Source: Methylomonas sp. EFPC3
GTDB lineage: Bacteria > Pseudomonadota > Gammaproteobacteria > Methylococcales > Methylomonadaceae
Direction: 5' to 3'
DNA length: 64,000 bases
NCBI RefSeq assembly: GCF_029643245.1
Contig: NZ_CP116398.1
Location: 1,922,001-1,986,000, forward strand
The position numbers and the translations under genes were made by a program. This document shows, piece after piece, positions 15,170-30,580 of the stretch; positions within the stretch are counted from its first letter, which is position 1; each line of letters starts with the position of its first letter. Under the pieces are notes generated by a model that worked only from the letters and a program-made list of their open reading frames with translations, searched no databases and was not told the DNA's origin.

Positions 15170-15600
15170 GTGTCGCTACCGCGACGGGGTTTGTTTGAAG
15201 TCGGGTCTCGGCCCGACAACCGAGTGACTTTTGCTACGAAAACCATCCCTGGTTTTCGCCCTTCGGGCCAGCCTTTCGGCTGTTCAAATTCGTTCCAGAC
15301 GAATTTGTGCGTGGCCAAAGAAAAGTCACCAAAAGAAAGGCCACCCGACATTCCGCCTTAATCCTGCGCTTTACGAAAACCATCCGTGGTTTTCGCCCTG
15401 CGGGTCAGCCTATCGGCTGTTCAAATTTGCTCCAGGCAAATTTGTCGCTTTTGGTGAGGGTTTTCGGAAGGGCCATCCTTGGCCCTCCGAAAACGAGCGG
15501 CATCCCTGCCGCTCCCCTATCGGGCTATTCTCACCAAATACCCACGGGGCACAAGAGCTGCGATGCTCGGGGCGGAATAACGGGACGAAAACCGTCGCGC
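15170..15600 (+). repeat. Multi-hairpin block 1 (left member of pair A)
   Basis: This 431-bp block opens with GTCGCTACCGCGAC and runs through a chain of hairpins to CCGTCGCG, which can pair back to the opening CGCGACGG to close the whole unit. It carries an internal duplication of the CGAAAACCATCC...GGTTTTCG and GGCTGTTCAAATT module (about 15238-15302 and 15374-15450). The enclosing stem TTTGGTGAG/CTCACCAAA differs from block 3 (TTTGGCGAG/CTCGCCAAA) by a compensated pair. Short ORFs on both strands here are not credible genes. Confidence 0.85.
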
Positions 15601-15631
15601 TATCAAAACGGCTTAGGTTAGACCAAGATTC

Positions 15632-15664
15632 GTAGGGTGGGCACGGCTTTTTGTGCCCACGCGG
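15632..15664 (+). repeat. REP element, family A (GTAGGGTGGGCAC)
   Basis: GTAGGGTGGGCAC and GTGCCCACGCG form a hairpin around GGCTTTTT. The GTAG head is the hallmark of REPs recognised by RAYT transposases. It is the left flank of the RAYT pseudogene; an inverted copy with the same loop lies at 16261-16293. Confidence 0.85.
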
Positions 15665-15673
15665 ACAAACCGT

Positions 15674-16213
15674 TCACTCCCCCACAACCAATTCATCAAC
15701 GCCATCACCCCAATCAACCGAATAAACGCCGTCCTTAACATAACGATGAAACGTCGAATACGGCCAATCTTTGACCTGCTGCGAATACCCGTGCTTTACC
15801 GGGTTGTAATGAATGTAATCCATATGCCGGGCAAAATCGGTTTCATCGCGTATTTGATGTTCCCAATACCGGCGTTGCCATAAGGTCGATTCCCGATGTT
15901 TTTGTTTCGAGGCATTGATCCATTCGGCCCGCCGATATGCGTCACCTCATGCCACGCTCACCTGCCGTTTTATCACGCCCCAACGGGTTGAATAATCCGC
16001 GTCGTCGCCCGGCAAGGTCCAGATAGTATGCAAATGATCCGGCAACAAAACCCAGGCATCAATGGTAAACGGCCGTTTGGTTCGGGTAATCGCAATCGCC
16101 TTTCGCAAAGCCTCTCGTACCGGTTCATCGCATAAAATCGCCTGCCGCCGATACGTCACCACCGTGAAAAAATACGTTGCACCGGGATTTTGCGAGCGGC
16201 GGTAACGGGACAT
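15674..16213 (-). pseudogene. REP-associated tyrosine transposase (RAYT, Y1_Tnp) with one in-frame stop
   Basis: The first 88 codons encode MSRYRRSQNPGATYFFTVVT through the catalytic-region LLPDHLHTIWTLP and stop at a TGA at 15947-15949. Reading on in the same frame gives the complete second half: WQRRYWEHQIRDETDF, HMDYIHYNPVKHGY and WPYSTFHRYV, ending at TGA 15674-15676. The full length would be 179 codons, close to the 176 of the intact RAYT at 29655. So this is a single nonsense change rather than a deletion or frameshift. RAYTs are IS200-like HUH nucleases that act on REP hairpins; inverted family A REPs flank this one. Confidence 0.88.
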
Positions 16214-16260
16214 TTTTATTTGTTAGTTTTCGGTGGTTAATCAGGGTTTGTGGTTTTCCC

Positions 16261-16293
16261 CGCGTTGGCACAAAAAGCCGTGCCCACCCTATG
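16261..16293 (-). repeat. REP element, family A, right flank of RAYT pseudogene
   Basis: On the minus strand it reads almost identically to the REP at 15632-15664, including the GGCTTTTT loop, but the head is ATAGGG instead of GTAGGG. The pair forms inverted ends around the RAYT pseudogene. Confidence 0.8.
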
Positions 16294-16296
16294 CAG

Positions 16297-16812
16297 CTAC
16301 GTTGAACATTTGTTGCGATAATTATTACTCAAGCGCACGACAAAATAAAAAAACACAGCGACGCAAAAAAACATAGGCCAAACATAAATATAAGCCTCCT
16401 TACTTTTGATATATTTACTTCGTTGATCTAAATAATCAATTACTAGCTTTCCATCAACCTCCAGCTGAAGGAGCCGATTTTCAGTAAAAAATCCATTGAT
16501 TCTTGCCTCATACCACCATGCTTTCGCTTTTTTGCCTTTAAGTTGATTTTTATCTTCGGAAGCGACGCAATCTTTCATCCCAACACTTGTTATCCAGCAG
16601 TTCAATTCGATAGATTTACCTTTATCGTTAAGCATTAGTGAACTACCTCTGCTTAGTGGCGTAAGGTTAAATGATATCGTCCCATCGCCAGTTTCTAATT
16701 GATTAAACTCTGGAATTTTTAATAAAAATGTATCGAGATCGAATAACGACAATATAAATGTTAATAAAACAAATAATAAAGCAGCGCTAGCTAAACTTGA
16801 TTTATTTTTCAT
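16297..16812 (-). CDS. Small membrane protein of unknown function
   Basis: The 171-residue product has an N-terminal hydrophobic segment (ASAALLFVLLTFILSLF) and a second near the C-terminus (AYIYVWPMFFCVAVFFYFVV), with about 110 polar residues between, probably periplasmic. I recognise no family. The gene is clearly richer in A and T than its neighbours, which suggests transfer. I prefer the ATG at 16812, which has a CAGG ribosome-like site; an in-frame ATG at 16863 adds 17 residues and abuts a family C REP. It is cargo of hairpin pair A together with the RAYT pseudogene. Confidence 0.6.
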   Translation of the reverse strand: MKNKSSLASAALLFVLLTFILSLFDLDTFLLKIPEFNQLETGDGTISFNLTPLSRGSSLMLNDKGKSIELNCWITSVGMKDCVASEDKNQLKGKKAKAWWYEARINGFFTENRLLQLEVDGKLVIDYLDQRSKYIKSKEAYIYVWPMFFCVAVFFYFVVRLSNNYRNKCST

Positions 16813-16865
16813 AAATGCCTGAAAATTTATTCCGATGGATGTGCCGAACGGAGTGAAGCTCATCG

Positions 16866-16905
16866 ATCGCGAACGATGCGCCTCCTTTCGTCGGCAGCAT
16901 CCTAC
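16866..16905 (-). repeat. REP-like element, family C (GTAGGATGCTGCCGACG)
   Basis: On the minus strand it reads GTAGGATGCTGCCGACGAAAGG then AGGCGCATCGTTCGCG. Nearly the same sequence lies at 28153-28200 upstream of the KAP NTPase gene. It has the GTAG head of RAYT-linked REPs and sits directly upstream of the membrane-protein gene. Confidence 0.7.
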
Positions 16906-16952
16906 AACACAATCAAAATCCTAGCTTTCAAAATCATCTAATAACCTTTCAT

Positions 16953-17310
16953 CTCGCGACGGGGTCGTTCCCGTTATTCCGCCCCGAGCATCGCAGCTCT
17001 TGTGCCCCGTGGGTATTTGGGGAGATTAGCCCGCAGGGGAGCGGCAGGGATGCCGCTCGTTTTCGGAGGGGCTGGGAAGCCCCTTTCGAAAACCCTCGCC
17101 AAAAGCGACAAATTTGCCTGGAACAAATTTGAACAGCCGATAGGCTGACCCGCAGGGCGAAAACCACGGATGGTTTTCGTAAAGCGCAGGATTGAGGCGG
17201 AATTCCGGGTGGCTTTTTCTTTGGATACTTTCTTTTGGCCAAGCAAAAGAAAGTATCTCGGCTGTCGGGCCGAGACCCGACTTCAACAGAACCTGTCGCG
17301 GTAGCGACAC
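16953..17310 (-). repeat. Multi-hairpin block 2 (right member of pair A)
   Basis: On the minus strand this block begins GTGTCGCTACCGCGAC and follows the same hairpin order as blocks 1 and 3, ending ACCCCGTCGCGAG. It is inverted relative to block 1, so the two bound a 2.1-kb segment holding the RAYT pseudogene and the membrane-protein gene. Its third hairpin is GATACTTTCTTTTG/CAAAAGAAAGTATC, different in sequence from block 3 but still paired. Nothing recognisable lies between 17311 and 17427. Confidence 0.85.
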
Positions 17311-17427
17311 ATTCATATCCCCCCTCATCCTAGCCTTCTCCCTCAGGGAGAAGGAACAAACCGTCCCGCAATCAAATGCATAAACCAAATATATGAGTGC
17401 CACACGCAAATCATGCCAAGCCAAATA

Positions 17428-18147
17428 TCACTTCCTCTCATGCCCAAACTGAAAAATCACCGGATTGCCCTGGTTATGAATAATCACCTCCTTCTTCGGC
17501 TCGTCGCCTATCGCCGCCGGTTGAGCTGCAGTACTCGCCCCCGCCGCAGCCGGAATCTCCCGAACCTCCACCCGCACGTCCGGCATCCATTTCGGTTTGA
17601 ACAACTCGGTTCTGACTCGGCCGGGTTGCTTCGGCAGCGGTGCTTGCTCCAGCACGTCCAGGCAGGCGGTGCCGATTTGGTCGACCAGTTTGTCGGCGAT
17701 CCGCGCCGGGGCAACGTCTTTGTCTAAAGCATGAGCGCTGAAAGTCGATTCGCGTTCGACCAAAACCGCTTGATTGCCGGCATCGCGCAAACTGCAGGTC
17801 ACCGGCAATACGTCGGCTTTTTGGAAATCGACGGCGCGCGGGTCGGAGTTGCCGGAGGAAAAGGAAAAGCCGACCGGGGTTTCCCGCCGCGCCACTTTAC
17901 CCAGCCTGGCCTGCAACCGGTGGCTGAACGGCCCGCTGGCGCTGAGCGGAAACTGCCATTCCGCCAGATTGTTCCGTACCCGCTCAGCCAGATTCGCCGG
18001 GTCCAATCCAATGCCGAACTGGCTCAGATTATCGTCGACCAGTTCGAATGCAACCGCTTGTAGCGGCTTAACCGGTTCCGGCTCGGCCGCGCCTGCCGCA
18101 CCGGCAAAACCCAGTGCGGCGACAGCCAAAACAAAAAAGTTTTTCAT
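17428..18147 (-). CDS. Secreted protein of unknown function
   Basis: The 239-residue product begins with a clear signal peptide (MKNFFVLAVAALGFAGAAGA) and is probably periplasmic. The mature part has two cysteines (VTCSLRD and GTACLDVL) that could form a disulfide. The C-terminal third has a low-complexity AAAGASTAAQPAA stretch before KKEVIIHNQGNPVIFQFG. I recognise no family. It is divergent from the porin gene; the 179-base gap between them contains an inverted repeat that may be a shared operator. Confidence 0.75.
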   Translation of the reverse strand: MKNFFVLAVAALGFAGAAGAAEPEPVKPLQAVAFELVDDNLSQFGIGLDPANLAERVRNNLAEWQFPLSASGPFSHRLQARLGKVARRETPVGFSFSSGNSDPRAVDFQKADVLPVTCSLRDAGNQAVLVERESTFSAHALDKDVAPARIADKLVDQIGTACLDVLEQAPLPKQPGRVRTELFKPKWMPDVRVEVREIPAAAGASTAAQPAAIGDEPKKEVIIHNQGNPVIFQFGHERK

Positions 18148-18210
18148 AGTCTTCTCTCTCCCAAGTTGCTTGCCACTCTACGGACGCCGCGAGTTGCCGG
18201 CCATACGTCA

Positions 18211-18228
18211 AATGACTGATGAGTCATT
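18211..18228. promoter_or_regulatory. Inverted repeat AATGACT-N4-AGTCATT, possible operator
   Basis: A perfect 7-base inverted repeat with a 4-base spacer lies about midway between the divergent starts of the secreted-protein and porin genes. Its size and position suit a dimeric regulator site, possibly for the response regulator at 10866. That link is speculative. Confidence 0.35.
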
Positions 18229-18326
18229 CGCCCGATTGTGGCAGGACCGCGCAAAATTTAAAAATTTCCCCGAAGTTTACGAGCGCCACGGCCGCCGGCT
18301 CTGGCAAGTTTTAACTAGATAGGGGA

Positions 18327-19619
18327 ATGCAAATGACGGGTTTTAATCGACAAAAAACCGGCAGCCGGGCCATCGGCTTGCTGAGCGGTATGGCCTTGGG
18401 TGCCATCGGCCTGAGCCAGGCGCCGGAAGCGACAGCCGGCGCCACCTTCAAGATCGACGACACCAAATGGGTCAGCGTCGGCGCCGGTTTGCGCACCAGT
18501 TTCCGCGCCCAGGAAAGCGCCGCCGGTGCCGGCGCGGAAAAATGGAGCAACGATTTCAACCTGGACAACATCCGTTTGTATATCAACGGCCAGATCCATA
18601 AATACCTGAAAGTGGAATTCAACACCGACTGCCAAACCTGCGGCAACGGCGGCGAGGTGCGGGTGCTGGATGCGATCGGCAAATTCGAGGTCAACCCTTA
18701 CGCCAACTTGTGGGTGGGCCGGATGCTGGTGCCGGCCGAACGCCGCGAAATGAACGGTCCGTTCTACAGCGCCGTTTATAACATCTTCTCCGCCGGTACC
18801 CCGTTCGAACCGTCCGATTACAACTTGGTCATCAAATCCGACGGCACCTCGGCCGGTTCCTTCGGCCGCGACGACGGTGTCACCTTCTGGGGTGCGGCAT
18901 TCGACGGTCGCTTGCAATACGCCGCCGGTTTTTTCCGCGGCTTACGCGGCGGCGCTAACGTCGACCACAACATTCTCTATGGGCAACGCGTCGCTTATAA
19001 CTTTTGGGAAGTCGAGAAGAACCCAGGCTATTACACCTCCGGCACCTATTACGGCAAAGGCGGCGACATCCTGACCGTCGGCATCTCCAACCAATATCAG
19101 GAAGACGGCGCCGGCCGTGGATTTACCGCGGCCAGTGGAGCCGATCCGGCGATTCCTGCGGCAGCAGGTAGTTTTCGGGGCACCACGGTCGATCTGTTGA
19201 TGGAAAAAGTATTGCCCGGCGGCGGCGTCGTGACCTTCAATGGCGAGTACAAAAACTACGGGATTTCCGGCAACGCATACAACCAATCAGTCCGCGATAG
19301 CGAGGGAACCGACCGGTCAACCCAATTCTCGATGTTCGAAGGCAATGCTTACGACGTCAGCGGCATGTACCTGTTTCCGCAAAAGATCGGTATCGGCCAG
19401 TTCCAGCCGTTCCTGCGCTACGTCAACGTCTCCCCCAGCACCAGTTCCACCCGCGAGGTGTATGAAGCCGGCGTCAACTACATCATCGACGGCCACAACG
19501 CCAAAATTTTCGCCAGCTACCAATACGGCGACCTGTTAACCAAGGGCATCAACTACAAATCCACCGCCACCGGCGACGACGTCAGCCAGATGATGGTCGG
19601 CTTCCAGTGGCAAATTTAA
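18327..19619 (+). CDS. Outer-membrane porin, probably for urea or short amides
   Basis: The 430-residue product starts with a signal-like region (LLSGMALGAIGLSQAPEATAGA) and is otherwise rich in alternating polar/aromatic beta strands. It ends MMVGFQWQI, with the bulky C-terminal residue of outer-membrane barrels. It resembles FmdC/phosphate-selective-porin-like proteins found next to amide and urea ABC transporters. A cysteine pair in CQTCGNGG could form a loop disulfide. A second ATG at 18333 is an alternative start. Position directly upstream of urtA supports a role in outer-membrane uptake. Confidence 0.8.
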   Translation: MQMTGFNRQKTGSRAIGLLSGMALGAIGLSQAPEATAGATFKIDDTKWVSVGAGLRTSFRAQESAAGAGAEKWSNDFNLDNIRLYINGQIHKYLKVEFNTDCQTCGNGGEVRVLDAIGKFEVNPYANLWVGRMLVPAERREMNGPFYSAVYNIFSAGTPFEPSDYNLVIKSDGTSAGSFGRDDGVTFWGAAFDGRLQYAAGFFRGLRGGANVDHNILYGQRVAYNFWEVEKNPGYYTSGTYYGKGGDILTVGISNQYQEDGAGRGFTAASGADPAIPAAAGSFRGTTVDLLMEKVLPGGGVVTFNGEYKNYGISGNAYNQSVRDSEGTDRSTQFSMFEGNAYDVSGMYLFPQKIGIGQFQPFLRYVNVSPSTSSTREVYEAGVNYIIDGHNAKIFASYQYGDLLTKGINYKSTATGDDVSQMMVGFQWQI

Positions 19620-19659
19620 TGACGGTGGCATAGCCACATTTACGCCAACCTGACAAACC

Positions 19660-19690
19660 GTAGGGTGGGCACCGAATAGGTGCCCACGCG
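19660..19690 (+). repeat. REP element, family A
   Basis: GTAGGGTGGGCAC...GTGCCCACGCG hairpin between the porin gene and urtA. It forms an inverted pair with the copy at 19705-19732, an arrangement like a bacterial interspersed mosaic element. It may act as an mRNA boundary. Confidence 0.85.
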
Positions 19691-19704
19691 AAGCAGGAGC
19701 CTTC

Positions 19705-19732
19705 ACGCGTGGGCGCTGCCTGCCCACCCTAC
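19705..19732 (-). repeat. REP element, family A, inverted partner
   Basis: On the minus strand it reads GTAGGGTGGGCAGGC then GCCCACGCGT. It pairs in inverted orientation with 19660-19690, 14 bases away. Confidence 0.8.
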
Positions 19733-19790
19733 CTAGCGAGCAAACGGGCCACCATCGCCCACGATTTCTTCCTGACATAGGACTACTACA

Positions 19791-21092
19791 ATGAAAAGAC
19801 TGAGCATTTCCTTCCGCAAACTGGCGACCGCCGCAGCGCTCTCCACCGCGCTGTTCGGCGCTGCCGGCTCGGCCCAGGCCGAAGACACCATCAAGGTCGG
19901 CGTACTGCATTCGCTGTCCGGCACCATGGCGATCTCGGAAACCACTTTAAAAGACACCATGCTGATGCTGATCGACGAGCAGAACAAAAAAGGTGGTCTG
20001 CTCGGCAAGAAACTGGAAGCGGTGGTGGTCGACCCGGCCTCCAACTGGCCGTTATTTGCAGAAAAAGCCCGCGAGCTGATCACCAAGGACAAAGTCTCGG
20101 CCATCTTCGGCTGCTGGACCTCGGTATCCCGGAAATCGGTCTTGCCGGTGATCGAAGAACTGAACAGCATCCTGTTCTACCCGGTGCAATACGAGGGCGA
20201 AGAGTCTTCCAAAAACGTGTTCTACACCGGCGCCGCGCCTAACCAACAAGCGATCCCGGCGGTCGACTACCTGATGAACGATCTGAAAGTACAACGCTGG
20301 GTGTTGGCCGGTACCGACTACGTCTATCCACGCACCACCAACAAAATCCTGGAAGCGTACTTGAAAGCCAAAGGCGTCAAACCGGCGGACATCATGATCA
20401 ACTACACCCCGTTCGGCCATTCCGACTGGCAAAGCATCGTCGCCGACATCAAGAAATTCGGCTCGGCCGGCAAGAAAACCGCGGTGGTTTCGACCATCAA
20501 CGGCGACGCCAACGTGCCGTTCTATAAAGAATTGGGCAACCAAGGCATCAAAGCCGAGGACATTCCGGTCGTCGCTTTCTCGGTCGGCGAAGAGGAACTT
20601 TCCGGCATGGATACCAAACCGCTGGTCGGCCATTTGGCAGCCTGGAACTACTTCATGAGCGTAGACACCACCAAAAACGCGGCCTTCATCCAGCAATGGA
20701 AGGACTACATCAAGAATCCGAAGCGCGTGACCAACGACCCGATGGAAGCGCACTACATCGGCTTCAACATGTGGGTGAAAGCGGTCGAGAAAGCCGGCAC
20801 CACCGATCCCGACGCGGTGCAAAAAGCCATCATCGGCGTCGAATTCCCCAACCTGACCGGCGGCACCGCGAAAATGCTGCCCAACCACCACATCAGCAAA
20901 CCGGTGCTGATCGGCGAAATCCAGGAAGACGGCCAATTCGCCACCGTCTGGCAAACCAACAAAGTCGTCGACGGCGACGCTTGGTCCGACTTCCTGCCGG
21001 ACAGCAAACCGATCATCGCCGACTGGACCGCACCGATCAATTGCGGCAACTACAACACCAAAACCAAGAAGTGTTCAGGACAGAACTACTAA
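19791..21092 (+). CDS. urtA: Urea ABC transporter substrate-binding protein
   Basis: The 433-residue periplasmic protein has a signal peptide (to about residue 30, AAGSAQA) and the branched-chain-amino-acid-binding-protein fold typical of UrtA: IKVGVLHSLSGTMAISET, FGCWTSVSRKSVLPVIE, LFYPVQYEGEESSKNVFYTG and YFMSVDT. UrtA is the binding protein of the high-affinity urea importer; close relatives (FmdD) bind short-chain amides. Neighbouring urtBCDE and the urease genes favour urea. It opens the transporter operon. Confidence 0.95.
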   Translation: MKRLSISFRKLATAAALSTALFGAAGSAQAEDTIKVGVLHSLSGTMAISETTLKDTMLMLIDEQNKKGGLLGKKLEAVVVDPASNWPLFAEKARELITKDKVSAIFGCWTSVSRKSVLPVIEELNSILFYPVQYEGEESSKNVFYTGAAPNQQAIPAVDYLMNDLKVQRWVLAGTDYVYPRTTNKILEAYLKAKGVKPADIMINYTPFGHSDWQSIVADIKKFGSAGKKTAVVSTINGDANVPFYKELGNQGIKAEDIPVVAFSVGEEELSGMDTKPLVGHLAAWNYFMSVDTTKNAAFIQQWKDYIKNPKRVTNDPMEAHYIGFNMWVKAVEKAGTTDPDAVQKAIIGVEFPNLTGGTAKMLPNHHISKPVLIGEIQEDGQFATVWQTNKVVDGDAWSDFLPDSKPIIADWTAPINCGNYNTKTKKCSGQNY

Positions 21093-21160
21093 CAGCGGAT
21101 GTTATCCCCGCGAGGCGCGCGACACGGAAGTCGCGGGCTTCGCCCCCGACAGGAATTACG

Positions 21161-23102: not shown

Positions 23103-23457
23103 GTGTCGCTACCGCGACGGGTTGTTTAGAAGTCGGGTCTCGGCCCGACAGCCGAGTGACTTTTCTTTGTTTGGCCAAAGAAAAGTCACCAAAAGAAAGG
23201 CCACCCGGAATTCCGCCTCAATCCTGGCTTTTACGAAAACCATCCATGGTTTTCGCCCTGCGGGCCAGCCTATCGGCTGTTCAAATTTGCTCCAGGCAAA
23301 TTTGTCTCTTTTGGCGAGGGTTTTCGGAAGGGGCTTCCTGCCCCTCCGAAAACGAGCGGCATCCCTGCCGCTCCCCTGCGGGCTGATCTCGCCAAATACC
23401 CACGGGGCACAAGAGCTGCGATGCTCGGGGCGGAATAACGGGACTAACCCCGCCACG
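23103..23457 (+). repeat. Multi-hairpin block 3 (left member of pair B), cleanest copy
   Basis: Successive perfect or near-perfect hairpins are: GTCGC/GCGAC 23105-23118; GTCGGG/CCCGAC 23132-23149, competing with CTCGGC/GCCGAG; a 14-base-pair stem 23156-23189; CGAAAACCAT/ATGGTTTTCG 23234-23255; CAGCC/GGCTG 23266-23279; CAAATTTGC/GCAAATTTG 23282-23304; TTTTCGG...CCGAAAA 23321-23352; GAGCGGC/GCCGCTC 23354-23373; GAGC/GCTC 23413-23426. A 9-base-pair stem, 23310-23318 with 23388-23396, encloses three of them. It lies inside the urt operon. Confidence 0.88.
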
Positions 23458-23506
23458 AAAATTAAGGTGGTCGGCCCATCCTTTCCGGCTAGCTTGAGAC
23501 TCAATC

Positions 23507-23537
23507 GTAGGGTGGGCACGATTAAGTGCCCACGCGG
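23507..23537 (+). repeat. REP element, family A, inside pair B
   Basis: GTAGGGTGGGCAC...GTGCCCACGCGG hairpin. With the inverted copy at 23548-23574 it is the only content between hairpin blocks 3 and 4. Confidence 0.85.
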
Positions 23538-23547
23538 AATAGCAACC

Positions 23548-23574
23548 AACGGTGGGCAAAGTTGCCCACCCTAC
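23548..23574 (-). repeat. REP element, family A, inverted partner inside pair B
   Basis: On the minus strand it reads GTAGGGTGGGCAAC then TTGCCCACCG. It is inverted relative to 23507-23537. Confidence 0.8.
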
Positions 23575-23590
23575 GCAAATTCGGGCGGCT

Positions 23591-23852
23591 GATGGTTTTA
23601 ACCCCGTATGCCGCGCCGAGCACCGAAGTTTTTATCGAGAATAGCCCGAAGGGGTGCGGCAGGGATGCCGCACGGCGGCGGAGGGGCTGGGAAGCCCCTT
23701 CTGCCGACCCTCGATAAAAACTTCGGCGCGCAGGATATAAGCGGCATCCGGGCCGCCTTTTCTTTGGGTACTTTCTTTTGGCGGAGCAAAAGAAAGTACC
23801 TCGGCTGTCGGGCCGAGACCCGACTTACAAAAAACCGTCGCGGTAGCGACAC
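23591..23852 (-). repeat. Multi-hairpin block 4 (right member of pair B)
   Basis: On the minus strand it begins GTGTCGCTACCGCGAC and follows the shared order but lacks the CGAAAACCATCC and CAAATTTGC hairpins. The enclosing stem is a perfect 17-base-pair CCGAAGTTTTTATCGAG/CTCGATAAAAACTTCGG, unrelated in sequence to block 3. It ends 16 bases before the urtC start codon, so the urtC leader is almost entirely this block. Confidence 0.85.
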
Positions 23853-23868: not shown

Positions 23869-24987
23869 ATGAACCTACAAAATCTGACTCAAGACAAAAC
23901 CTACAGCACCGTCCTAACCGCGTTAGCATCGGTCACACTACTAATCCCCCTATGCAATCTAATCTTCCCCGAAGACTCGGCCCTGCATTTCTCCGCCTAC
24001 TCAGTCTCCCTAATCGGCAAATACCTCACCTTCGCCCTACTCGGCTTATCACTCGACATGGTCTGGGGCTATGCCGGGATTCTGGTCCTCGGCCAAGGCG
24101 CATTCTTTGCCTTGGGCGGCTACGCGATGGGCATGTATTTGATGCGGCAGATCGGCACCCGTGGCGTGTACGGCAATGCCGAACTGCCTGACTTCATGGT
24201 GTTCCTGAACTGGACCGAACTGCCCTGGTACTGGTACGGCTTCGAGAATTTCGGTTTCGCGATGCTGATGGTGTTCCTCGCCCCTGGCCTGCTGGCTTTC
24301 GTGTTCGGTTGGTTGGCGTTTCGCTCGCGAGTGACCGGCGTGTATTTGTCCATCATTACCCAAGCCTTGACTTACGCGCTGCTGCTGGCTTTCTTCCGCA
24401 ACGAAATGGGTTTCGGCGGCAATAATGGACTGACCGATTTTAAAGACATCCTCGGCTTCAACATCCAATCCGAAGCCGTCCGTTCAGTATTGTTACTAAT
24501 GACCGGCCTCAGCCTGATCGGTGCCCTGCTGTTGTGCCGCTGGATCGTCAACAGCAAACTGGGCCGGGTGGTCACGGCCATCCGTGACCAAGAATCCCGG
24601 GTGCGATTTCTGGGTTACCGGGTGGAATTGTTCAAACTGTGGGTGTTCGTGTTCGCCGCCATGTTGGCCGGGCTGGCCGGCGCGCTGTATGTGCCGCAGG
24701 TCGGCATCATCAACCCCAGCGAATTTTCGCCGCTCAACTCGCTGGAAATCGTCATCTGGGTCGCGGTCGGCGGTCGCGGCACTTTGTACGGCGCCATCAT
24801 CGGCGCGGTGCTGGTCAACTACGCCAAAACCGTATTGACCGGATTGATGCCGGATGCCTGGCTGTTTTGCCTGGGCGGCGCCTTCATTTTGGTCACGCTG
24901 TTGATGCCCGACGGCATCGTCGGCCTGTTGAGCCGGCGGATTAAACCCAAACCCACTCTTAACGCTACCGGAGGACAACCGGCATGA
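23869..24987 (+). CDS. urtC: Urea ABC transporter permease UrtC
   Basis: The 372-residue LivM-type permease has about ten membrane segments, for example YLTFALLGLSLDMVWGYAGI and LLLMTGLSLIGALLLC, and the family motif GQGAFFALGGYAMGMYL. It pairs with UrtB in the inner membrane. I start it at ATG 23869 (AGG ribosome-like site upstream), because upstream in-frame codons run through hairpin block 4. It is 848 bases from urtB, an unusual gap for this operon. The stop overlaps the urtD start. Confidence 0.94.
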   Translation: MNLQNLTQDKTYSTVLTALASVTLLIPLCNLIFPEDSALHFSAYSVSLIGKYLTFALLGLSLDMVWGYAGILVLGQGAFFALGGYAMGMYLMRQIGTRGVYGNAELPDFMVFLNWTELPWYWYGFENFGFAMLMVFLAPGLLAFVFGWLAFRSRVTGVYLSIITQALTYALLLAFFRNEMGFGGNNGLTDFKDILGFNIQSEAVRSVLLLMTGLSLIGALLLCRWIVNSKLGRVVTAIRDQESRVRFLGYRVELFKLWVFVFAAMLAGLAGALYVPQVGIINPSEFSPLNSLEIVIWVAVGGRGTLYGAIIGAVLVNYAKTVLTGLMPDAWLFCLGGAFILVTLLMPDGIVGLLSRRIKPKPTLNATGGQPA

Positions 24988-25793
24988 TGATCTCGGCTGC
25001 AACCACCACCGAAGGCGGCGCCAGCCTGCCGCTGGTCGGGGAAATCGACGCCCGCCACGGCCCGATTCTGTACATGGAAGACGTCAGCGTCAGCTTCGAC
25101 GGCTTCCGCGCGCTGAACCATCTTTCCTTGTACATCGACGACGGCGAACTTCGCTGCCTGATCGGCCCCAACGGTGCCGGCAAGACCACGCTAATGGATG
25201 TGATTACCGGTAAAACCAAACCGGACAGCGGCTCGGTGTTCTTCGGTCAAACCATTGACTTGCTGGAACTGGACGAACCGGCCATCGCTCAAGCCGGCAT
25301 CTGCCGCAAGTTTCAAAAGCCCAGCGTGTTCGATGCCTTGACCGTGTTCGAAAATCTGGAACTGGCCTTAAGAACCGACAAGCGCACCTGGTCGACCCTG
25401 TTTCACAAACTCAACGGCGAGCAACGCGACCGCATCCATGACGTCTTGCAAACCATCGCCCTGCCCGCCCAACAACGGCAACTGGCCGGTGCACTGTCGC
25501 ACGGCCAAAAGCAATGGCTGGAGATCGGCATGCTGCTGATGCAAGATCCGAAAGTGATGCTGGTCGACGAACCCATCGCCGGCATGACCCATCAGGAAGT
25601 CGAACGCACCGCCGAGTTATTGCTGTCCTTGCAAGGCAAACATTCCATCGTCGTGGTCGAGCACGACATGGAATTCGTGCGCAGTATCGCCCGTAAAGTC
25701 ACGGTATTGCACGAAGGCTCTGTGCTCACGGAAGGCACCATGGACGAAGTCCAAAACGATCCGCGCGTGATCCAAGTTTACCTGGGGGGATGA
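24984..25793 (+). CDS. urtD: Urea ABC transporter ATP-binding protein UrtD
   Basis: The 269-residue LivG-type ATPase has Walker A GPNGAGKTTLMDVITG, signature LSHGQKQWLEIGMLL, Walker B VMLVDEPIAGM and the switch histidine in VVVEHDMEFV. It drives urea import together with UrtE on the cytoplasmic face. The ATGA overlaps on both sides (urtC and urtE) indicate coupled translation. Confidence 0.95.
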   Translation: MMISAATTTEGGASLPLVGEIDARHGPILYMEDVSVSFDGFRALNHLSLYIDDGELRCLIGPNGAGKTTLMDVITGKTKPDSGSVFFGQTIDLLELDEPAIAQAGICRKFQKPSVFDALTVFENLELALRTDKRTWSTLFHKLNGEQRDRIHDVLQTIALPAQQRQLAGALSHGQKQWLEIGMLLMQDPKVMLVDEPIAGMTHQEVERTAELLLSLQGKHSIVVVEHDMEFVRSIARKVTVLHEGSVLTEGTMDEVQNDPRVIQVYLGG

Positions 25794-26566
25794 TGTTAAA
25801 CATTAGCGCATTGCAACAATACTACGGCGCCAGCCACACCCTATGGGACCTGGATTTGAGCGTCCCCGCCGGGTCCTGCGTCTGCCTGATGGGCCGCAAC
25901 GGCGTCGGCAAAACCACGCTGCTCAAAGCCATCATGGGCCTGCTGCCGGTGGCCGACGGCAGCATTCAATTCGACGGCGTGGAACTGGCCAAAGCCAAGG
26001 CCGAATCCCGCGCCGAGCTGGGCATCGGTTACGTGCCGCAAGGCCGGGAAATCTTTCCACTGTTGACCGTGGAAGAAAACCTGAAAACCGGCCTGCGCGC
26101 CGCCAACAAGCACGGCATCAAAAAAATCCCGGACAGTATCTTCGAGATTTTTCCGGTGCTAAAACAAATGCTAAAACGCCGCGGCGGCGACCTATCCGGC
26201 GGCCAGCAACAGCAATTGGCGATTGGCCGAGCCTTGGTATTGAATCCGCGCCTGCTGATTCTGGACGAACCCACCGAAGGCATCCAGCCCAACATCGTCA
26301 GCGAAATCGGCGATGTGATTATTCGCCTAAACAAGTCGCGCGGCCAACCTGTCGCCGTGCCCAAACCGGAAACCGGCGAAATCCATCAAGCCATCGACCG
26401 CATCCACAAAGAACTGGGCGTCACGGTGTTGCTGGTGGAACAAAAACTGCCGTTTGCGCGCAAGGTGGCGAACCAGTTTTGCATCATGGACCGCGGCCGG
26501 CATGTGGCGGTGGGGGCGATGGACGAATTGGCGGACGATATGGTGAAGCGATATTTGACGGTGTGA
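25790..26566 (+). CDS. urtE: Urea ABC transporter ATP-binding protein UrtE, with an extra internal segment
   Basis: The 258-residue LivF-type ATPase has Walker A GRNGVGKTTLLKAIMG, the YVPQGREIFPLLTVEENL Q-loop region, signature DLSGGQQQQLAIGRAL and Walker B LLILDEPTEGIQP. Between the D-loop region and VTVLLVEQKLPFAR there is an extra segment of about 25 residues (near 180-205, SRGQPVAVPKPETGEIHQ), making it longer than the usual 230 or so. The overlap with urtD is 4 bases. Two adjacent ATG codons offer alternative starts. Confidence 0.93.
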   Translation: MMLNISALQQYYGASHTLWDLDLSVPAGSCVCLMGRNGVGKTTLLKAIMGLLPVADGSIQFDGVELAKAKAESRAELGIGYVPQGREIFPLLTVEENLKTGLRAANKHGIKKIPDSIFEIFPVLKQMLKRRGGDLSGGQQQQLAIGRALVLNPRLLILDEPTEGIQPNIVSEIGDVIIRLNKSRGQPVAVPKPETGEIHQAIDRIHKELGVTVLLVEQKLPFARKVANQFCIMDRGRHVAVGAMDELADDMVKRYLTV

Positions 26567-26657
26567 CCCAACCAAGCCCCTTTTCAAAAAAGGGGCTTGG
26601 GCAAAAACGGGCATCGGCCATCATTCAAACTCACAGCGGGATCACGGAGAAATAGAC

Positions 26658-26960
26658 ATGAAATCCGAACAATATTGGCTGGCGGTCGGGGCATTGTTAT
26701 TGGTTTGGTCGATGCGGAGCGAGGCGCATGGCAGTTACGAAGCCGTGATGGAAGGCGGCAACCTATTGCAATTGACCCAAGCCGCCCTGCATCCGTTTTT
26801 CGAAATCCCCGATCTGCCGGCATTACTGATCAGTGTATTAATTTTGGGATTCGTGTTCGGCCCGGTTATATTGCACCTCGCCCGGCAACGGCACGCTCAA
26901 AAATCTGAGCCACCACTGTTGTCGGAAAAATCGGCGATCACGCCAAAATCCAAAAACTGA
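26658..26960 (+). CDS. Small membrane protein between urtE and ureD
   Basis: The 100-residue product has an N-terminal hydrophobic signal or anchor (YWLAVGALLLVWSM), then AHGSYEAVMEGG, a second hydrophobic segment (LPALLISVLILGFVFGPVILHLA) and a basic, polar tail. I recognise no family. It is preceded by a GGAG ribosome site and lies in the same direction between the transporter and urease genes, so it is probably cotranscribed and may have a role in urea handling. This is inferred from position alone. Confidence 0.6.
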   Translation: MKSEQYWLAVGALLLVWSMRSEAHGSYEAVMEGGNLLQLTQAALHPFFEIPDLPALLISVLILGFVFGPVILHLARQRHAQKSEPPLLSEKSAITPKSKN

Positions 26961-26978
26961 TAACGCCGCCGCTCATCC

Positions 26979-27830
26979 ATGCCCGCAAACCTCGCCGCTT
27001 CATCCGTTCCCGTTGCCACCTCAGAACCAGCAGCATGGGAGGCCGAGTTAAGGCTGGGCTTTAGCCAACGCGGCGACAAAACCGTCTTGGCTAACAGCGA
27101 GCACCGCGGGCCTTTGACCGTACAGCGCCCCTTCTACCCGGAAGGCGGCGTTTGCCACGTCTATCTGCTGCATCCGCCCGGCGGCGTGGTAGCCGGCGAT
27201 CAGTTGAGCATTACTGCCGCTGTCGACACCACAGCCCAAGTACTCATCACCACGCCCGCCGCCGGCAAGTTTTATCGCAGCGGCGGCGGCGAAGCGCAGC
27301 AAACCATCAATTTAACAATCGGCGAAAATGCCAGTCTGGAATGGTTGCCGCAGGAAACCATCGTTTACGAAGGTGCGCGGTTAAATTCCAACATGAATAT
27401 CGATCTGGCCGAACAAGCACGCTTTATCGGCTGGGAAATATTAGCCTTAGGCCGCCCCGCTGCCGGTGAAGGCTTCGACAACGGCGCCGCCAGCCTGAAC
27501 TGGCACATCAGCCGCGCCGGGCGTTTACTGTATATGGAGCGCTTGCGCCTGGATGCAGCAGCTTTTCAAGCCCGTTGGGGTTTGTTTGGGCATTCGGCAT
27601 GCGGGACGATGTTTGTTTATCCGGCTACTCCTTTGCAATTGGCGGCAGTGCAGGAATTGATTGGGGATGAGGCTAATCGCGGGGTGACCTTGATTGAGGG
27701 GTTGTTGATTTGTCGGGGATTGGATAGGCGGGCGGATTTGTTGAAGTCGTTTTTTGAAGCTGTTTGGGGATTGGTGCGGGGGGATGTTGTCGGGCGGGAG
27801 GTTTGTGCGCCGAGGATTTGGGCGACATGA
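26979..27830 (+). CDS. ureD: Urease accessory protein UreD (UreH)
   Basis: The 283-residue product matches UreD: AELRLGFSQRGDKTVLANSEHRGPLTVQRPFYPEG near the N-terminus (in shorter form LTVQRPFYPEGGVCHVYLLH), PGGVVAGDQLSI, LITTPAAGKFYRS and LEWLPQETIVYEGARL. UreD forms the scaffold with UreF and UreG for delivering nickel to apo-urease. The gene ends 5 bases before hairpin block 5, which separates it from ureABC by 3.4 kb. The last codons become visibly less GC-rich towards the insertion. Confidence 0.94.
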   Translation: MPANLAASSVPVATSEPAAWEAELRLGFSQRGDKTVLANSEHRGPLTVQRPFYPEGGVCHVYLLHPPGGVVAGDQLSITAAVDTTAQVLITTPAAGKFYRSGGGEAQQTINLTIGENASLEWLPQETIVYEGARLNSNMNIDLAEQARFIGWEILALGRPAAGEGFDNGAASLNWHISRAGRLLYMERLRLDAAAFQARWGLFGHSACGTMFVYPATPLQLAAVQELIGDEANRGVTLIEGLLICRGLDRRADLLKSFFEAVWGLVRGDVVGREVCAPRIWAT

Positions 27831-27834
27831 TTTT

Positions 27835-28106
27835 TGTGTCGCTAACGCGACGTATTTGTTTTGAAGTCGGGTCTCGGCCCGACAGCCGAGATACTTTTCT
27901 TTGCTTGTCCAAAGAAAAGTATCCAAAAGAAAAGACACCCCGATGCCGCTTTGATCCTGCGCGCCGAAGGGTTTGAACGGGGTTTTCGGAAGGGCTATCC
28001 CTAGCCCTCCGAAAACGCGATGCGTCCCTGCATCGCCCCTGCGGGCTGATCCGTCCAAACCCTCCGGTGCTCGGCGCGGCAAAAGGGGATTAACCCCGTC
28101 GCGCGT
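27835..28106 (+). repeat. Multi-hairpin block 5 (left member of pair C)
   Basis: It begins GTGTCGCTAACGCGACG and ends CCCCGTCGCGCG, allowing a CGCGACG/CGTCGCG closing stem. The third hairpin is ATACTTTTCTTTG/CAAAGAAAAGTAT and the eighth is GCGATGC/GCATCGC, both changed in sequence relative to block 3 but still paired. The enclosing stem CCGAAGGGTTTG/CAAACCCTCCGG has a few mismatches. It starts 5 bases after the ureD stop. Confidence 0.85.
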
Positions 28107-28152
28107 TGAATAGTTATTGGGTAAATTTGTATTTTGGGTTTCAAATTCTATT

Positions 28153-28200
28153 GTAGGATGCTGCCGACGAGAGGAGGCGCATCTGTCGCGAGCGATGCAC
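28153..28200 (+). repeat. REP-like element, family C, upstream of the KAP gene
   Basis: GTAGGATGCTGCCGACGAGAGG then AGGCGCATCTGTCGCGAGCG. It matches 16866-16905 and likewise sits just upstream of an A/T-rich cargo gene inside a hairpin pair. Nothing else is recognisable between block 5 and the KAP start. Confidence 0.7.
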
Positions 28201-28249
28201 TTCACTTTATTCAGCACCCATAAGCTTAAACAGTGATAGATAAACAGCT

Positions 28250-29554
28250 ATGAATTTAAAGTTTCAGAATCTTCAAATTGATCCCACCGATCCTTTCAGT
28301 AAAGATCTGTTAAACCGTAAACCAGAAATTGAAAACCTTTCTACTCTTATTTCTAATCTTAACTCACCTGCCGTATTGGCGATAGATTCACCATGGGGCA
28401 CGGGAAAAACCACATTCATAAAAATGTGGGAAGCTTTCTTACAGAACAATGGAATTGAATCGTTATATTTTAACGCTTGGGCAACCGATTTTTCGGAGGA
28501 CCCTTTAATTTCATTTCTAGGAGAAATGAACGATGGGCTTTCTAAATTGATCAGCTCTTCCGCTGAATCCAACGAAACTTGGGAACGTGCAAAAAATATT
28601 GGTACAACATTGGCAAAAAAAGGCATTCCAGCATTGATCAAAATCGCAACGGCTGGGGTTATCGACGCAGAAAAAATTATTGAAGACGAAGCCTCAAAAG
28701 TAATGGAAGCTTTAACAGGCGACATGTTAAATAACTATTTCAGGCAAAAGAGTGCCATCGCGGAATTTCATGAGGCATTAACCAAATTAATTGCCGAATC
28801 GAAGATAAAACCCATTGTTATCTTTGTCGATGAACTTGACCGTTGTCGACCTACATACTCAATATCTTTATTAGAAAGAATTAAGCATCTTTTCAACATT
28901 GAAGGCTTAGTTTTCGTACTTTCACTTGATAAATATCAACTCTGCCATTCGATTAGCGCTGTTTACGGCTACAACTTTGACTCGGAGTCGTATTTACGTC
29001 GTTTTTTTGACTTTGAATACCAGCTTAAAAGACCTGAAATTAAGGGATATGTGAAAGCGTTAGTTACAGTATTGGAATTAGATAAATTTCTTGAACCAAG
29101 AAAGAAATACGTAGGATTTCGTTATGATTTGGAACACCTCGAAATGGTGTTTTTGATGTTAGTTGAACGTCTAAATCTCCCTCCACGTGAAGTTGAGCAG
29201 CTTATTGCAAGCATTAATCTTGCCATACGCACTACCAAGGAGAATGAATATGTCTATCCAGCGTTATTGGTTTTTTTAGTAATAGCTAAAAACAAACGAC
29301 CCAAAGTATATCAACATTATATTTTGCCATCTGAAAATGAGAGAGCAATTATCGACTACTTGTATGAATTGATACCAGAACAATTACGGTACAAGAATTT
29401 CAGTTTCGAGTGTGCGCTTATTGAAGGATTTTTAATTGCGGCGAAGATAGATCGATACGAAAGGAGTGAGTGTGAAACATATAATACACACAGAAAAAAT
29501 CTGGCTGATGAAACTTGCACGTCCGACGCTCGAGGAGAGTCGTGGAGATCGTAA
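28250..29554 (+). CDS. KAP-family P-loop NTPase
   Basis: The 434-residue product has Walker A DSPWGTGKTTFIKMW near residue 50, the FNAWATDFSEDPL segment and Walker B KPIVIFVDELDRCRP near 200, a classic KAP NTPase pattern. No transmembrane insertion is obvious between the Walker motifs, although ALIKIATAGVIDAEKI is weakly hydrophobic. KAP NTPases are often carried on mobile elements and some act in phage exclusion (PifA) or occur in defence islands. The gene is much richer in A and T than the urease genes around it, which indicates transfer. It is cargo of hairpin pair C. Confidence 0.85.
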   Translation: MNLKFQNLQIDPTDPFSKDLLNRKPEIENLSTLISNLNSPAVLAIDSPWGTGKTTFIKMWEAFLQNNGIESLYFNAWATDFSEDPLISFLGEMNDGLSKLISSSAESNETWERAKNIGTTLAKKGIPALIKIATAGVIDAEKIIEDEASKVMEALTGDMLNNYFRQKSAIAEFHEALTKLIAESKIKPIVIFVDELDRCRPTYSISLLERIKHLFNIEGLVFVLSLDKYQLCHSISAVYGYNFDSESYLRRFFDFEYQLKRPEIKGYVKALVTVLELDKFLEPRKKYVGFRYDLEHLEMVFLMLVERLNLPPREVEQLIASINLAIRTTKENEYVYPALLVFLVIAKNKRPKVYQHYILPSENERAIIDYLYELIPEQLRYKNFSFECALIEGFLIAAKIDRYERSECETYNTHRKNLADETCTSDARGESWRS

Positions 29555-29575
29555 GTAAACCGAATTATAGCCCGC

Positions 29576-29605
29576 GTAGGTCCGATTAGCGAAGCGTAAT
29601 CGGAC
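29576..29605 (+). repeat. REP element, family B, left flank of the intact RAYT
   Basis: GTAGGTCCGATTAGCG then CGTAATCGGAC, pairing around GAAG. The exact inverted copy is at 30190-30220, so the two bracket the RAYT gene. Confidence 0.88.
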
Positions 29606-29654
29606 GAATGTTTAAACCTAACAAACACTCAAACTCTTAAAACACTAAAAAACC

Positions 29655-30185
29655 ATGCCCAATTACCGACGCGCTTTTATTCCGGGTGGCACCTGGTTTT
29701 TTACGGTGAATTTGTTGGTGAGAAAGAATAACGATTTGTTGCTCCGGGAAATCGATTTATTGCGAGACACGGTGCGGGCGGTGCGGAAGCGTTACTCCTT
29801 TCAAATTGATGCCTGGGTGGTATTACCGGAACATATGCACGCGGTTTGGACGTTGCCGCCGGGTGACGCGGATTTCAGCAAACGCTGGCGATTGATCAAA
29901 AGCGGATTTTCTCGGGCATTGCCAAAAACCGAGTACCGGTCGAATGTTCGAAAGATGGCTGGCGAACGTGGAATCTGGCAGCGACATTTTTGGGAACATT
30001 CGATACGCGACGAAACAGATTTTGAACGCCATGTTGATTATGTGCATATCAATCCGGTTAAACATGGGCATGTCGCCAAAGCCGTCGAGTGGCCGTATTC
30101 GAGTTTCCATCGATATGTGGAAAAGGGAATTTATCCGCCAAGTTGGGGTGGAAATTTGGATTTGGCGGTGGAAGGGGATGATTAA
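29655..30185 (+). CDS. REP-associated tyrosine transposase (RAYT), intact
   Basis: The 176-residue Y1_Tnp/HUH nuclease begins MPNYRRAFIPGGTWFFTVNL, has the metal-binding HUH-like motif in VLPEHMHAVWTLPPG, the IWQRHFWEHSIRDETDFERH segment and HVDYVHINPVKHGHV, with a tyrosine in WPYSSFHRYVEKG. RAYTs are single-copy IS200/IS605 relatives that cut and join single-stranded REP hairpins. Family B REPs flank it in inverted orientation. It shares most motifs with the disrupted RAYT at 15674. Confidence 0.93.
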   Translation: MPNYRRAFIPGGTWFFTVNLLVRKNNDLLLREIDLLRDTVRAVRKRYSFQIDAWVVLPEHMHAVWTLPPGDADFSKRWRLIKSGFSRALPKTEYRSNVRKMAGERGIWQRHFWEHSIRDETDFERHVDYVHINPVKHGHVAKAVEWPYSSFHRYVEKGIYPPSWGGNLDLAVEGDD

Positions 30186-30189
30186 CATG

Positions 30190-30220
30190 CGTCCGATTAC
30201 GCTTCGCTAATCGGACCTAC
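30190..30220 (-). repeat. REP element, family B, right flank of the intact RAYT
   Basis: GTCCGATTACG then CGCTAATCGGACCTAC, the reverse complement of 29576-29605. It starts 5 bases after the RAYT stop. Confidence 0.88.
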
Positions 30221-30249
30221 CGAGATTGATTTTGAACCTTTAATTTCGG

Positions 30250-30580
30250 GATGGTTTTGATCCCCTGATGCCGCGCCGAGCACCGAAGGGTTTGGACGGA
30301 CAAATCGGCAGGATAGCCGATTTGCATGCGCAGCACCCGAAGGGCGAGGTAAATGGATGTACCGAGTGAGCAGCCCGCAGGGGCGATGCAGGGATGCATC
30401 GCGTTTTCGGAGGGCCAAGGATGGCCCTTCCGAAAACCCCGTTCAAACCCTTCGGCGCGCAGGATCAAAGCGGCATGGGGCGGCCTTTCTTTTGGGTACT
30501 TTTCTTTGGCCGTCCAAAGAAAAGTACCTCGGCTGTCGGGCCGAGACCCGACATTTAAATAACCTTCGCGGCAGCGACAC
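30250..30580 (-). repeat. Multi-hairpin block 6 (right member of pair C)
   Basis: On the minus strand it begins GTGTCGCTGCCGCGAAGG and shares the architecture of block 5, with enclosing stem CCGAAGGGTTTG/CAAACCCTTCGG. About 75 extra bases, including an AAATCGGC/GCCGATTT hairpin, are inserted in the 3' half. It ends 10 bases from the end of yoeB. With block 5 it bounds a 2.75-kb segment holding the KAP and RAYT genes. Confidence 0.83.

What the first reader, a model, noticed from the sequence alone, without database searches (positions are those of the whole stretch)
15170..30580. Six multi-hairpin blocks with compensatory covariation between copies
Aligning the six blocks by eye shows the same order of stems with different stem sequences and constant loops. 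Hairpin 3 is GTGACTTTTC/GAAAAGTCAC in block 3, GATACTTTTC/GAAAAGTATC in block 5 and GTACTTTC/GAAAGTAC in block 4. Hairpin 8 is GAGCGGC/GCCGCTC, GCGATGC/GCATCGC or GTGCGGC/GCCGCAC around a constant TCCCT. The enclosing stem is TTTGGCGAG/CTCGCCAAA, TTTGGTGAG/CTCACCAAA or a 17-base-pair CCGAAGTTTTTATCGAG stem. Paired changes of this kind imply selection on a folded RNA or single-stranded DNA. I do not recognise it as a named family.
Basis: seen in the sequence. Interest (0 to 1): 0.88.

Follow-up and report, generated by a model that had tools for sequence, protein, structure and literature searches.

The report
Inverted pairs of CsrA-sponge-like RNA repeats
Six repeated blocks in this methane-eating bacterium are three inverted pairs of a repeat whose outward-reading strand looks like a folded RNA, with hairpins resembling those that soak up the regulator CsrA and a pseudoknot shared with many other bacteria; each pair brackets a small pocket, and where relatives were compared the DNA inside such pockets differs from strain to strain.

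Summary
The six blocks and their compensatory changes are real. They are three inverted pairs (B1/B2, B3/B4, B5/B6) of a dispersed element; the genome has 24 matches to its core pattern, which recurs in Proteobacteria, Desulfobacterota and Selenomonadales. On 44 Methylococcales-type copies, 31 of 51 stem pairs change on both sides. The core adds an H-type pseudoknot that covaries across lineages (43 copies, score 0.652 against 0.196 shuffled); its linker fits a triple helix. Rfam lists TwoAYGGAY, Bp1_684 or AaHKsRNA22 on that strand at related copies, not at the window's own blocks. Against a one-strand reading, the outer hairpin looks like a terminator on the inward strand (41 of 51). Best reading: a TwoAYGGAY/CsrB-like RNA with a pseudoknot end, in inverted pairs around changeable genes. 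Transcription and CsrA binding are not shown. New variant of a known kind.

The parts
15170..15612 (-). Block B1; strand given is the outward (putative RNA) strand. Six GGA-loop hairpins at 15237-15258, 15285-15307, 15374-15395, 15422-15444, 15469-15486, 15495-15514. Core hairpin split by an inserted module.
16957..17310 (+). Block B2, inverted partner of B1; GGA hairpins 17039-17058, 17067-17084, 17109-17131, 17158-17179; core 17207-17257
23103..23470 (-). Block B3, between urtB and urtC; GGA hairpins 23234-23255, 23282-23304, 23329-23345, 23354-23373; core 23156-23206
   Evidence: gene names from the ORFs by my reading
23600..23852 (+). Block B4, inverted partner of B3; GGA hairpins 23654-23673 and 23682-23699 (a third GGA, at 23767-23800, is the core loop itself); core 23750-23800
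27836..28100 (-). Block B5, downstream of ureD; GGA hairpins 27991-28008 and 28017-28036
   Evidence: gene name by my reading
27890..27940 (-). Pseudoknot core of B5: 13-bp helix, crossing 5-bp helix, pyrimidine linker in triple-helix register
27866..27890 (-). Second pair of crossing helices in B5 (GTCGGG/CCCGAC and CTCGG/CCGAG)
27836..27852 (-). Outer-end hairpin of B5, the boundary of the element; on the other (inward, +) strand it is followed by a T-rich stretch and looks like a terminator
30250..30580 (+). Block B6, inverted partner of B5; GGA hairpins 30301-30324, 30383-30402, 30411-30428; core 30478-30528
28250..29554 (+). Cargo of the B5/B6 pair: KAP-family P-loop ATPase (PF07693)
29655..30185 (+). 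Cargo of the B5/B6 pair: REP-associated-type tyrosine transposase (Y1_Tnp, 23.6 bits against 23), flanked by its own inverted GTAG-type repeats
15947..16213 (-). Cargo of the B1/B2 pair: remnant of a Y1_Tnp-type transposase (20.5 bits, below the cut-off of 23)
16297..16863 (-). Cargo of the B1/B2 pair: 188-aa ORF with no Pfam match

Best explanation
Each block is the complement of a structured RNA. The favoured strand is the other one, read outward from the middle of each pair. From 5' to 3' it has a multi-branched domain with two or more hairpins presenting GGA in the loop, then an H-type pseudoknot whose pyrimidine linker probably forms a major-groove triple helix, then a second pair of crossing helices and a terminal hairpin. 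It most likely works as a CsrA/RsmA-binding RNA (a sponge, or a regulatory 3' part of transcripts leaving the pocket), the pseudoknot protecting its 3' side. Copies lie as inverted pairs, so a transcript leaving the pocket in either direction would end in such an RNA, while the outer hairpin may stop transcripts coming in. The DNA inside the pocket turns over while the pair stays. Shown by sequence here: pairing with compensatory change, strand-biased GGA loops, pair geometry, different pocket contents at two loci. Inferred: transcription, CsrA binding, triple helix, 3' protection, termination.
For: Covariation. Triple-helix register in 43 of 43 aligned cores, of which the 9 with the swapped stem are the telling ones, since the scan pattern fixed stem and linker of the other type; in 142 unique cores the linker's first A-run matches the stem's first T-run in 141 (my reading). 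Strand: GGA loops 361/758 outward against 27/757; outside Methylococcales 122/372 against 20/371; background 66/1282. GGA contexts outside Methylococcales lean to C-A/C-A/T-GGA-T-G (70 contexts), close to RUACARGGAUGU as quoted in PMC7937890 (passage seen). csrA: 47 genomes with it 1.27 GGA loops per block, 20 without 0.26; other strand 0.22 and 0.19; p=2.7e-5. The own genome has csrA. Rfam: all 12 hits in or against a core-bearing block are on the outward strand. TwoAYGGAY was already predicted to bind CsrA (PMC4333381, passages seen). Bp1_Cand684 was detected by RT-PCR (PMC3521395, passages seen). Pairs: inward-facing in 35 of 45 neighbouring cores in loci not picked for pairs.
Against: No transcript or CsrA binding was seen for these copies; nothing in the passages of PMC3521395 says that its RT-PCR was strand-specific. 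No promoter signal in B5-B6: 4 sites against 4.6 expected. On the inward strand the outer hairpin is followed by 5 or more T in 8 bases in 41 of 51 copies, against 19 of 104 on the outward strand, and 3 of the 6 terminator-like sites are hairpins of B5 and B6 on that strand, so the inward strand may be used too. A per-column wobble test is not significant (23 against 15 columns, p=0.26), and in the outer module A.C cells slightly outnumber G.U (9 against 7). Twelve of 47 genomes with csrA have no GGA loop in their sampled blocks (three are Stenotrophomonas) and 3 of 20 without csrA average one or more. The csrA split largely follows lineage. In the second crossing pair one linker is a single base, tight for a pseudoknot.
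Confidence: 0.57

Rival explanations
1. The blocks are single-stranded-DNA ends of a mobile element, a long terminal inverted repeat mobilised in trans by a REP-associated tyrosine transposase (REPIN or TIRtron type); the hairpins are kept because the transposase reads folded DNA.
For: Inverted pairs with clean outer boundaries, many copies, sites without the element in relatives; 7 of 47 cargo proteins match the RAYT model at E 0.001 or better; RAYTs flanked by long inverted repeats are in print (PMC3733652: first part and sections 6 and 16 read; passages).
Against: Strong strand asymmetry of loops and of wobble cells. The RAYT in B5/B6 has its own GTAG repeats. RAYT over its curated cut-off in only 30 of 49 block-bearing genomes; 8 of 49 have no match. 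With B5 as query, 2 partial hits in 72,556 plasmid records and 0 of 50,697 phage records. No target duplication seen, though relatives were too diverged to judge.
Confidence: 0.2
2. A folded element acting at transcript ends (intrinsic terminator for transcripts running in, or RNA stabiliser), with CsrA not involved.
For: On the inward strand the outer hairpin is followed by a T-rich stretch in 41 of 51 copies against 19 of 104 outward. Genes outside the blocks point toward them 95 times and away 55 times. Lineages without csrA keep the pseudoknot but show few GGA loops. Triple-helix pseudoknots stabilise RNA (recall).
Against: GGA loops concentrated on one strand and mainly in csrA-bearing genomes; TwoAYGGAY hits. 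A terminator does not need a 250-bp domain with a pseudoknot. Terminator and outward RNA do not exclude each other.
Confidence: 0.17
3. Passive palindromic repeats whose paired changes come from gene conversion between copies and pairs, without selection for a fold.
For: Inner parts of the two blocks of a pair are often alike (B1/B2, B5/B6, L034, L041, L065).
Against: The crossing helix keeps pairing across lineages, with three or more standard pair types at four of its five positions; stems vary while loops stay fixed; strand asymmetry.
Confidence: 0.03

Closest known systems
TwoAYGGAY RNA (Rfam RF01731; table row seen in PMC2864571; predicted CsrA-binding in PMC4333381, passages seen)
   Same: Two neighbouring hairpins with GGA in the loop inside an enclosing stem; six Rfam hits of this family lie in core-bearing blocks of related loci (L150, L106, L086 twice, L108, L147), all on the outward strand.
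   Different: The Methylomonas blocks do not reach its threshold. Neither a pseudoknot nor an inverted-pair layout is mentioned in the passages I saw.
CsrB/CsrC/RsmX/Y/Z/RsmW sponge RNAs (RsmW and TwoAYGGAY are in Rfam clan CL00106)
   Same: Multiple GGA hairpins; RsmW gives five sub-threshold hits on the outward strand of the blocks (best 36.5 bits against 52).
   Different: Those are, from recall, few-copy sRNA genes with their own promoter and terminator; these are dispersed in inverted pairs.
Bp1_684 (RF02421) and AaHKsRNA22 (RF02902)
   Same: Five and one hits in or against the same element in Burkholderia and Aggregatibacter on the outward strand; Bp1_Cand684 was seen by RT-PCR (passages).
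   Different: Cover parts of the element only; no link to each other or to pairs in the passages I saw.
REPINs, GTAG/CGTC-REP dimers and TIRtrons (PMC3733652, parts read)
   Same: Inverted dimers of palindromic repeats; RAYT genes nearby.
   Different: Blocks of about 250-440 bp, no unpaired GTAG or CGTC tag, strand-biased loops.

Membership tests
TwoAYGGAY RNA (RF01731) | Scores above the Rfam gathering threshold | tested here: not met
   No hit on the window blocks. Met by six blocks in L150, L106, L086 (two), L108, L147 of 52 related loci scanned.
TwoAYGGAY RNA (RF01731) | Two adjacent hairpins with a GGA loop in one enclosing stem | tested here: met
   B1-B6 carry 2-6 GGA-loop hairpins each; hairpins and enclosing stem covary. 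B5 has loops AGGGAC and GGGA.
CsrA/RsmA sponge RNA | Several GGA hairpins fitting the CsrA site | tested here: met
CsrA/RsmA sponge RNA | Host encodes CsrA | tested here: met
   G000 has csrA. Not so for every carrier: 47 genomes with and 20 without it entered the comparison
CsrA/RsmA sponge RNA | Binds and titrates CsrA | not testable with these tools
   needs binding and expression data
CsrA/RsmA sponge RNA | Transcribed as an RNA | not testable with these tools
   only indirect: Rfam sRNA families on the same strand; RT-PCR of Bp1_Cand684 in print
REPIN / GTAG- or CGTC-REP | GTAG (or CGTC) tetranucleotide unpaired beside a short stem | tested here: not met
   Outer end is GTGTCGCTNNCGCGA with no such tag, compared with the description in PMC3733652
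REPIN / TIRtron | A cognate RAYT/TIRYT gene in the genome | tested here: inconclusive
   Over cut-off in 30 of 49 block-bearing genomes, weaker match in 11, none in 8
Insertion sequence or MITE | Target-site duplication at the ends | tested here: inconclusive
   Sites without the element found at two loci, but the flanks of relatives are too diverged

The most novel reading that the evidence does not exclude
A palindromic genetic pocket: two inverted copies of a CsrA-sponge RNA, each ending in a triple-helix pseudoknot, bracket a slot into which unrelated genes (candidate defence ATPases, transposases, others) are exchanged. Both copies read outward, so a cargo transcript in either direction gets the same CsrA-binding, exonuclease-resistant 3' end, while the outer hairpins stop transcripts running in from the neighbours.
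Probability: 0.3. Interest if true: 0.8.

Novelty: new variant of a known kind. Interest (0 to 1): 0.62.

Why it matters
It ties together entries that Rfam holds apart (TwoAYGGAY, Bp1_684, AaHKsRNA22) as parts of one widely scattered element, gives them a strand, a pseudoknot and a genomic layout, and suggests that CsrA-sponge-like RNAs can be carried as dispersed repeats around changeable genes. The covariation makes the pseudoknot and the proposed triple helix directly testable by compensatory mutation.

Tried and rejected
Loose motif scan with too many errors allowed, replaced by stricter scans. A core scan that misread the linker found 2 (corrected). An alignment with a wrong length filter kept 4 rows (corrected, 76 rows). 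Mobile-cassette test: at E 1e-30 the KAP cargo was found in 3 of 61 genomes, the own one, G011 inside a pair, and a weaker match in G021 without block ends; the DUF4357 cargo has relatives in 5 other genomes, none between paired block ends within the fetched flanks. So cargo was not seen to move with the blocks. L034 as an empty-site test failed: its flanks lie apart in many relatives. No promoter signal in B5-B6. Searches for a description in print: (open-access full texts, listings capped); none of the titles, abstracts or passages that I saw describes inverted pairs with this pseudoknot, which is not proof of absence.

Choices and dropped rows. Blocks with under 250 bases inside or with N were left out. 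A2 holds 43 of 62 non-redundant cores (only those 51 bases long); A3 44 of 48 (four divergent non-Methylococcales rows left out, so it speaks for one lineage); A4 51 of 83. Cargo: 47 proteins were scanned, 46 of the 63 ORFs plus one from B1/B2; the two KAP hits are the same cargo in two genomes. csrA survey: 79 loci asked for; L107 not held; L080, L094, L096, L103, L104, L128 and L178 had no countable block; 71 loci of 67 genomes were compared (by locus, 1.28 against 0.29, p=1.7e-5; by genome). Flanking-gene counts rest on a simple ORF rule.
Full report
What is there. The window is part of a 4.44-Mb genome whose genus is Methylomonas by inference: contigs of same-genus genomes (for example G012:C4, G006:C19, G016:C11, G023:C1) have the same lengths as named Methylomonas contigs. 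The six blocks are B1 15170-15612, B2 16957-17310, B3 23103-23470, B4 23600-23852, B5 27836-28100 and B6 30250-30580. They alternate in orientation: B1/B2, B3/B4 and B5/B6 are inverted pairs with outer ends GTGTCGCTNNCGCGA facing outward. B3/B4 lies between urtB and urtC, B5/B6 downstream of ureD (gene names by my reading of the ORFs).

Extent. The own genome has 54 match pieces to B3 and 24 matches to the core pattern. In an even sample of the class 18 of 274 genomes have the pattern (16 of 222 genera), and the backward control pattern found nothing in the rows shown. With B5 as query there are 2 partial matches in 72,556 plasmid records, both on replicons over 1 Mb, and none in 50,697 phage records.

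Pairs. In loci found by the scan alone, neighbouring cores face inward in 35 of 45 cases (6 face outward, 4 are tandem); 24 of the 35 are 358-668 bp apart and 11 are 1-5.6 kb apart. Over all loci, including some chosen because they held pairs, it is 66 of 81.

Structure. On the outward strand the inner domain (44 Methylococcales-type copies) has 51 pairs, 97.5% of cells paired, 31 pairs changed on both sides, score 0.386 against 0.121 +/- 0.006. The core (43 copies of several phyla) has a 13-bp helix and a 5-bp crossing helix between its loop and upstream sequence; the crossing helix alone scores 0.652 against 0.196 +/- 0.027, and 0.071-0.140 when slid. The linker between them is pyrimidine-rich and in register for T.A-T and C.G-C triples with the long helix in 43 of 43: 34 carry TTTCTTTT with AAAGAAAA, 9 TTTTCTTT with AAAAGAAA. 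The scan fixed the commoner type, so the 9 others carry the weight. In 142 unique cores the first run of the linker follows the first run of the stem in 141 (my reading). This mirror relation is what a parallel third strand needs; ordinary alternative pairing does not ask for it. The outer module (51 copies) has two more crossing helices, both with changes on both sides.

Strand. Perfect hairpins of five or more pairs with loops of 4-8 hold GGA in 361 of 758 cases on the outward strand and 27 of 757 on the other, in 228 blocks: 239/386 against 7/386 in Methylococcales and the unnamed relatives, 122/372 against 20/371 elsewhere. Random stretches of the same loci give 66 of 1282. Wobble cells in pairs predicted for both strands: 105 outward, 30 on the other (76 copies; 21 of the 105 come from two doubtful pairs). 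On the three alignments above it is 78 against 29 cells but only 23 against 15 columns (p=0.26), and the inner structure was predicted on the outward strand, so this line alone is weak. For the outer pairs of the core helix it is 46 against 1 cells, counting related sequences.

The other strand. The outer hairpin is followed by five or more T in eight bases in 41 of 51 copies on the inward strand, against 19 of 104 in the flank on the outward strand. A consensus scan of B5-B6 found 6 terminator-like sites (4.1 +/- 1.8 expected); three of them are block hairpins on the inward strand. Genes outside the blocks point toward them in 95 of 150 cases (p=0.0014). The element may therefore also stop transcripts that run in; this fits an insulated pocket but also the terminator rival.

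CsrA. The loop contexts outside Methylococcales lean to C-A/C-A/T-GGA-T-G (70 unique contexts), close to the consensus RUACARGGAUGU quoted in PMC7937890 (passage). csrA (PF02599) was surveyed in 28 and 49 genomes, some in both. By genome, 47 with csrA have 1.27 GGA loops per block (0.22 on the other strand) and 20 without 0.26 (0.19); Mann-Whitney p=2.7e-5. Against: 12 of the 47 have none, 3 of the 20 average one or more, and the split largely follows lineage. The own genome has csrA.

Known families. Rfam finds nothing at threshold on the window blocks (the only hit is a ureB small RNA elsewhere) and RsmW below threshold on the outward strand of five blocks. In 52 related loci scanned at threshold (17, 17 and 18) the three families give 14 hits; 12 lie in or against a core-bearing block: TwoAYGGAY in L150, L106, L086 (both blocks), L108 and L147; Bp1_684 in L137, L143 (both) and L167 (both); AaHKsRNA22 in L135. 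All 12 are on the outward strand (my comparison with the core positions). Of the other two, L150 45-208 (-) sits where an inverted partner would be, and L077 7902-7971 lies away from the core seen there. TwoAYGGAY was proposed as a CsrA-binding RNA in PMC4333381 (passages) and is listed in PMC2864571 (table row). Bp1_Cand684 was detected by RT-PCR in PMC3521395 (passages).

Pockets. Of 47 cargo proteins scanned, 7 match the RAYT model, 2 IS110, 2 GapS1, 2 QatA/KAP (one cargo in two genomes) and 2 PDC-S20, with single hits to PDC-S14, an RND pump, a phosphofructokinase and others, at E 0.001 or better; these are model names, not tested functions. At urtB-urtC, of 18 relatives fetched, six have a gap of 15-59 bases (G003, G004, G010, G021, G001, G045), five have other short sequence or a remnant, and seven have one or both block ends with inserts of 0.5-2.2 kb. 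At the L041 locus, of 18 relatives fetched 11 are without the element and 7 have it, beginning at or near GTGTCGC (in G012 the right end is lost or altered); G013 and G017 share 611 bp of inner DNA, and other pairs of genomes share at most about 210 bp. So pairs persist while contents differ; how exchange happens is inference (recombination between block copies is one way).

Mechanism. I favour an outward RNA that binds CsrA through its GGA hairpins and is protected on its 3' side by the pseudoknot, with the outer hairpin perhaps doubling as an inward terminator. Lineages without csrA keep the pseudoknot and mostly lack GGA loops, which fits a modular RNA whose core has a role of its own. The RAYT reading is second: RAYTs are frequent in the pockets, but 8 of 49 block-bearing genomes have no match to the model and 19 none over its cut-off. 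Transcription, CsrA binding and the triple helix remain to be tested.

Noticed in passing
window 32124-32409 (-): Match to 5' ureB small RNA (RF02514, 129.5 bits) antisense to the large ORF at 31974-33677.
   Followed up: no
window 29574-29605 and 30188-30217: The RAYT gene at 29655-30185 is flanked by inverted copies of a GTAGGTCCGATTAGCGAAGCGTAATCGG-type repeat, a different repeat family from the blocks.
   Followed up: no
window 15632-15660, 16268-16292, 19660-19732, 23506-23575: GTAGGGTGGGCA palindromic repeats, some inside block pairs; probably GTAG-type REPs.
   Followed up: no
G000:C1:3434300-3434380 (L040 2801-2880): A minimal form: two outer-end hairpins around one shared central hairpin, about 80 bp, with no core or inner domain.
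   Followed up: no
L034 2237-3984 (G000:C1:868736-870483): The two flanks of this pair lie far apart or on different contigs in many relatives, so the pair may sit at a rearrangement joint.
   Followed up: partly
L033 3144, L043 2196, L039 3628, window B1: A similar hairpin module follows directly after the first strand of the core hairpin and splits the pseudoknot, so modules may move within blocks.
   Followed up: no
L046, L050, L051, L055 (urtB-urtC of relatives): A second repeat type with the hairpin GGTTCCCA...TGGGAA, in some cases beginning with the same outer end as the blocks.
   Followed up: no
window 30590-31170 (-): Two small ORFs that look like a RelE/YoeB-type toxin and its Phd-type antitoxin beside B6 (named from the sequence, no search made).
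   Followed up: no
L039 around 3600-4285: A RAYT-type reading frame appears to run into a block.
   Followed up: no
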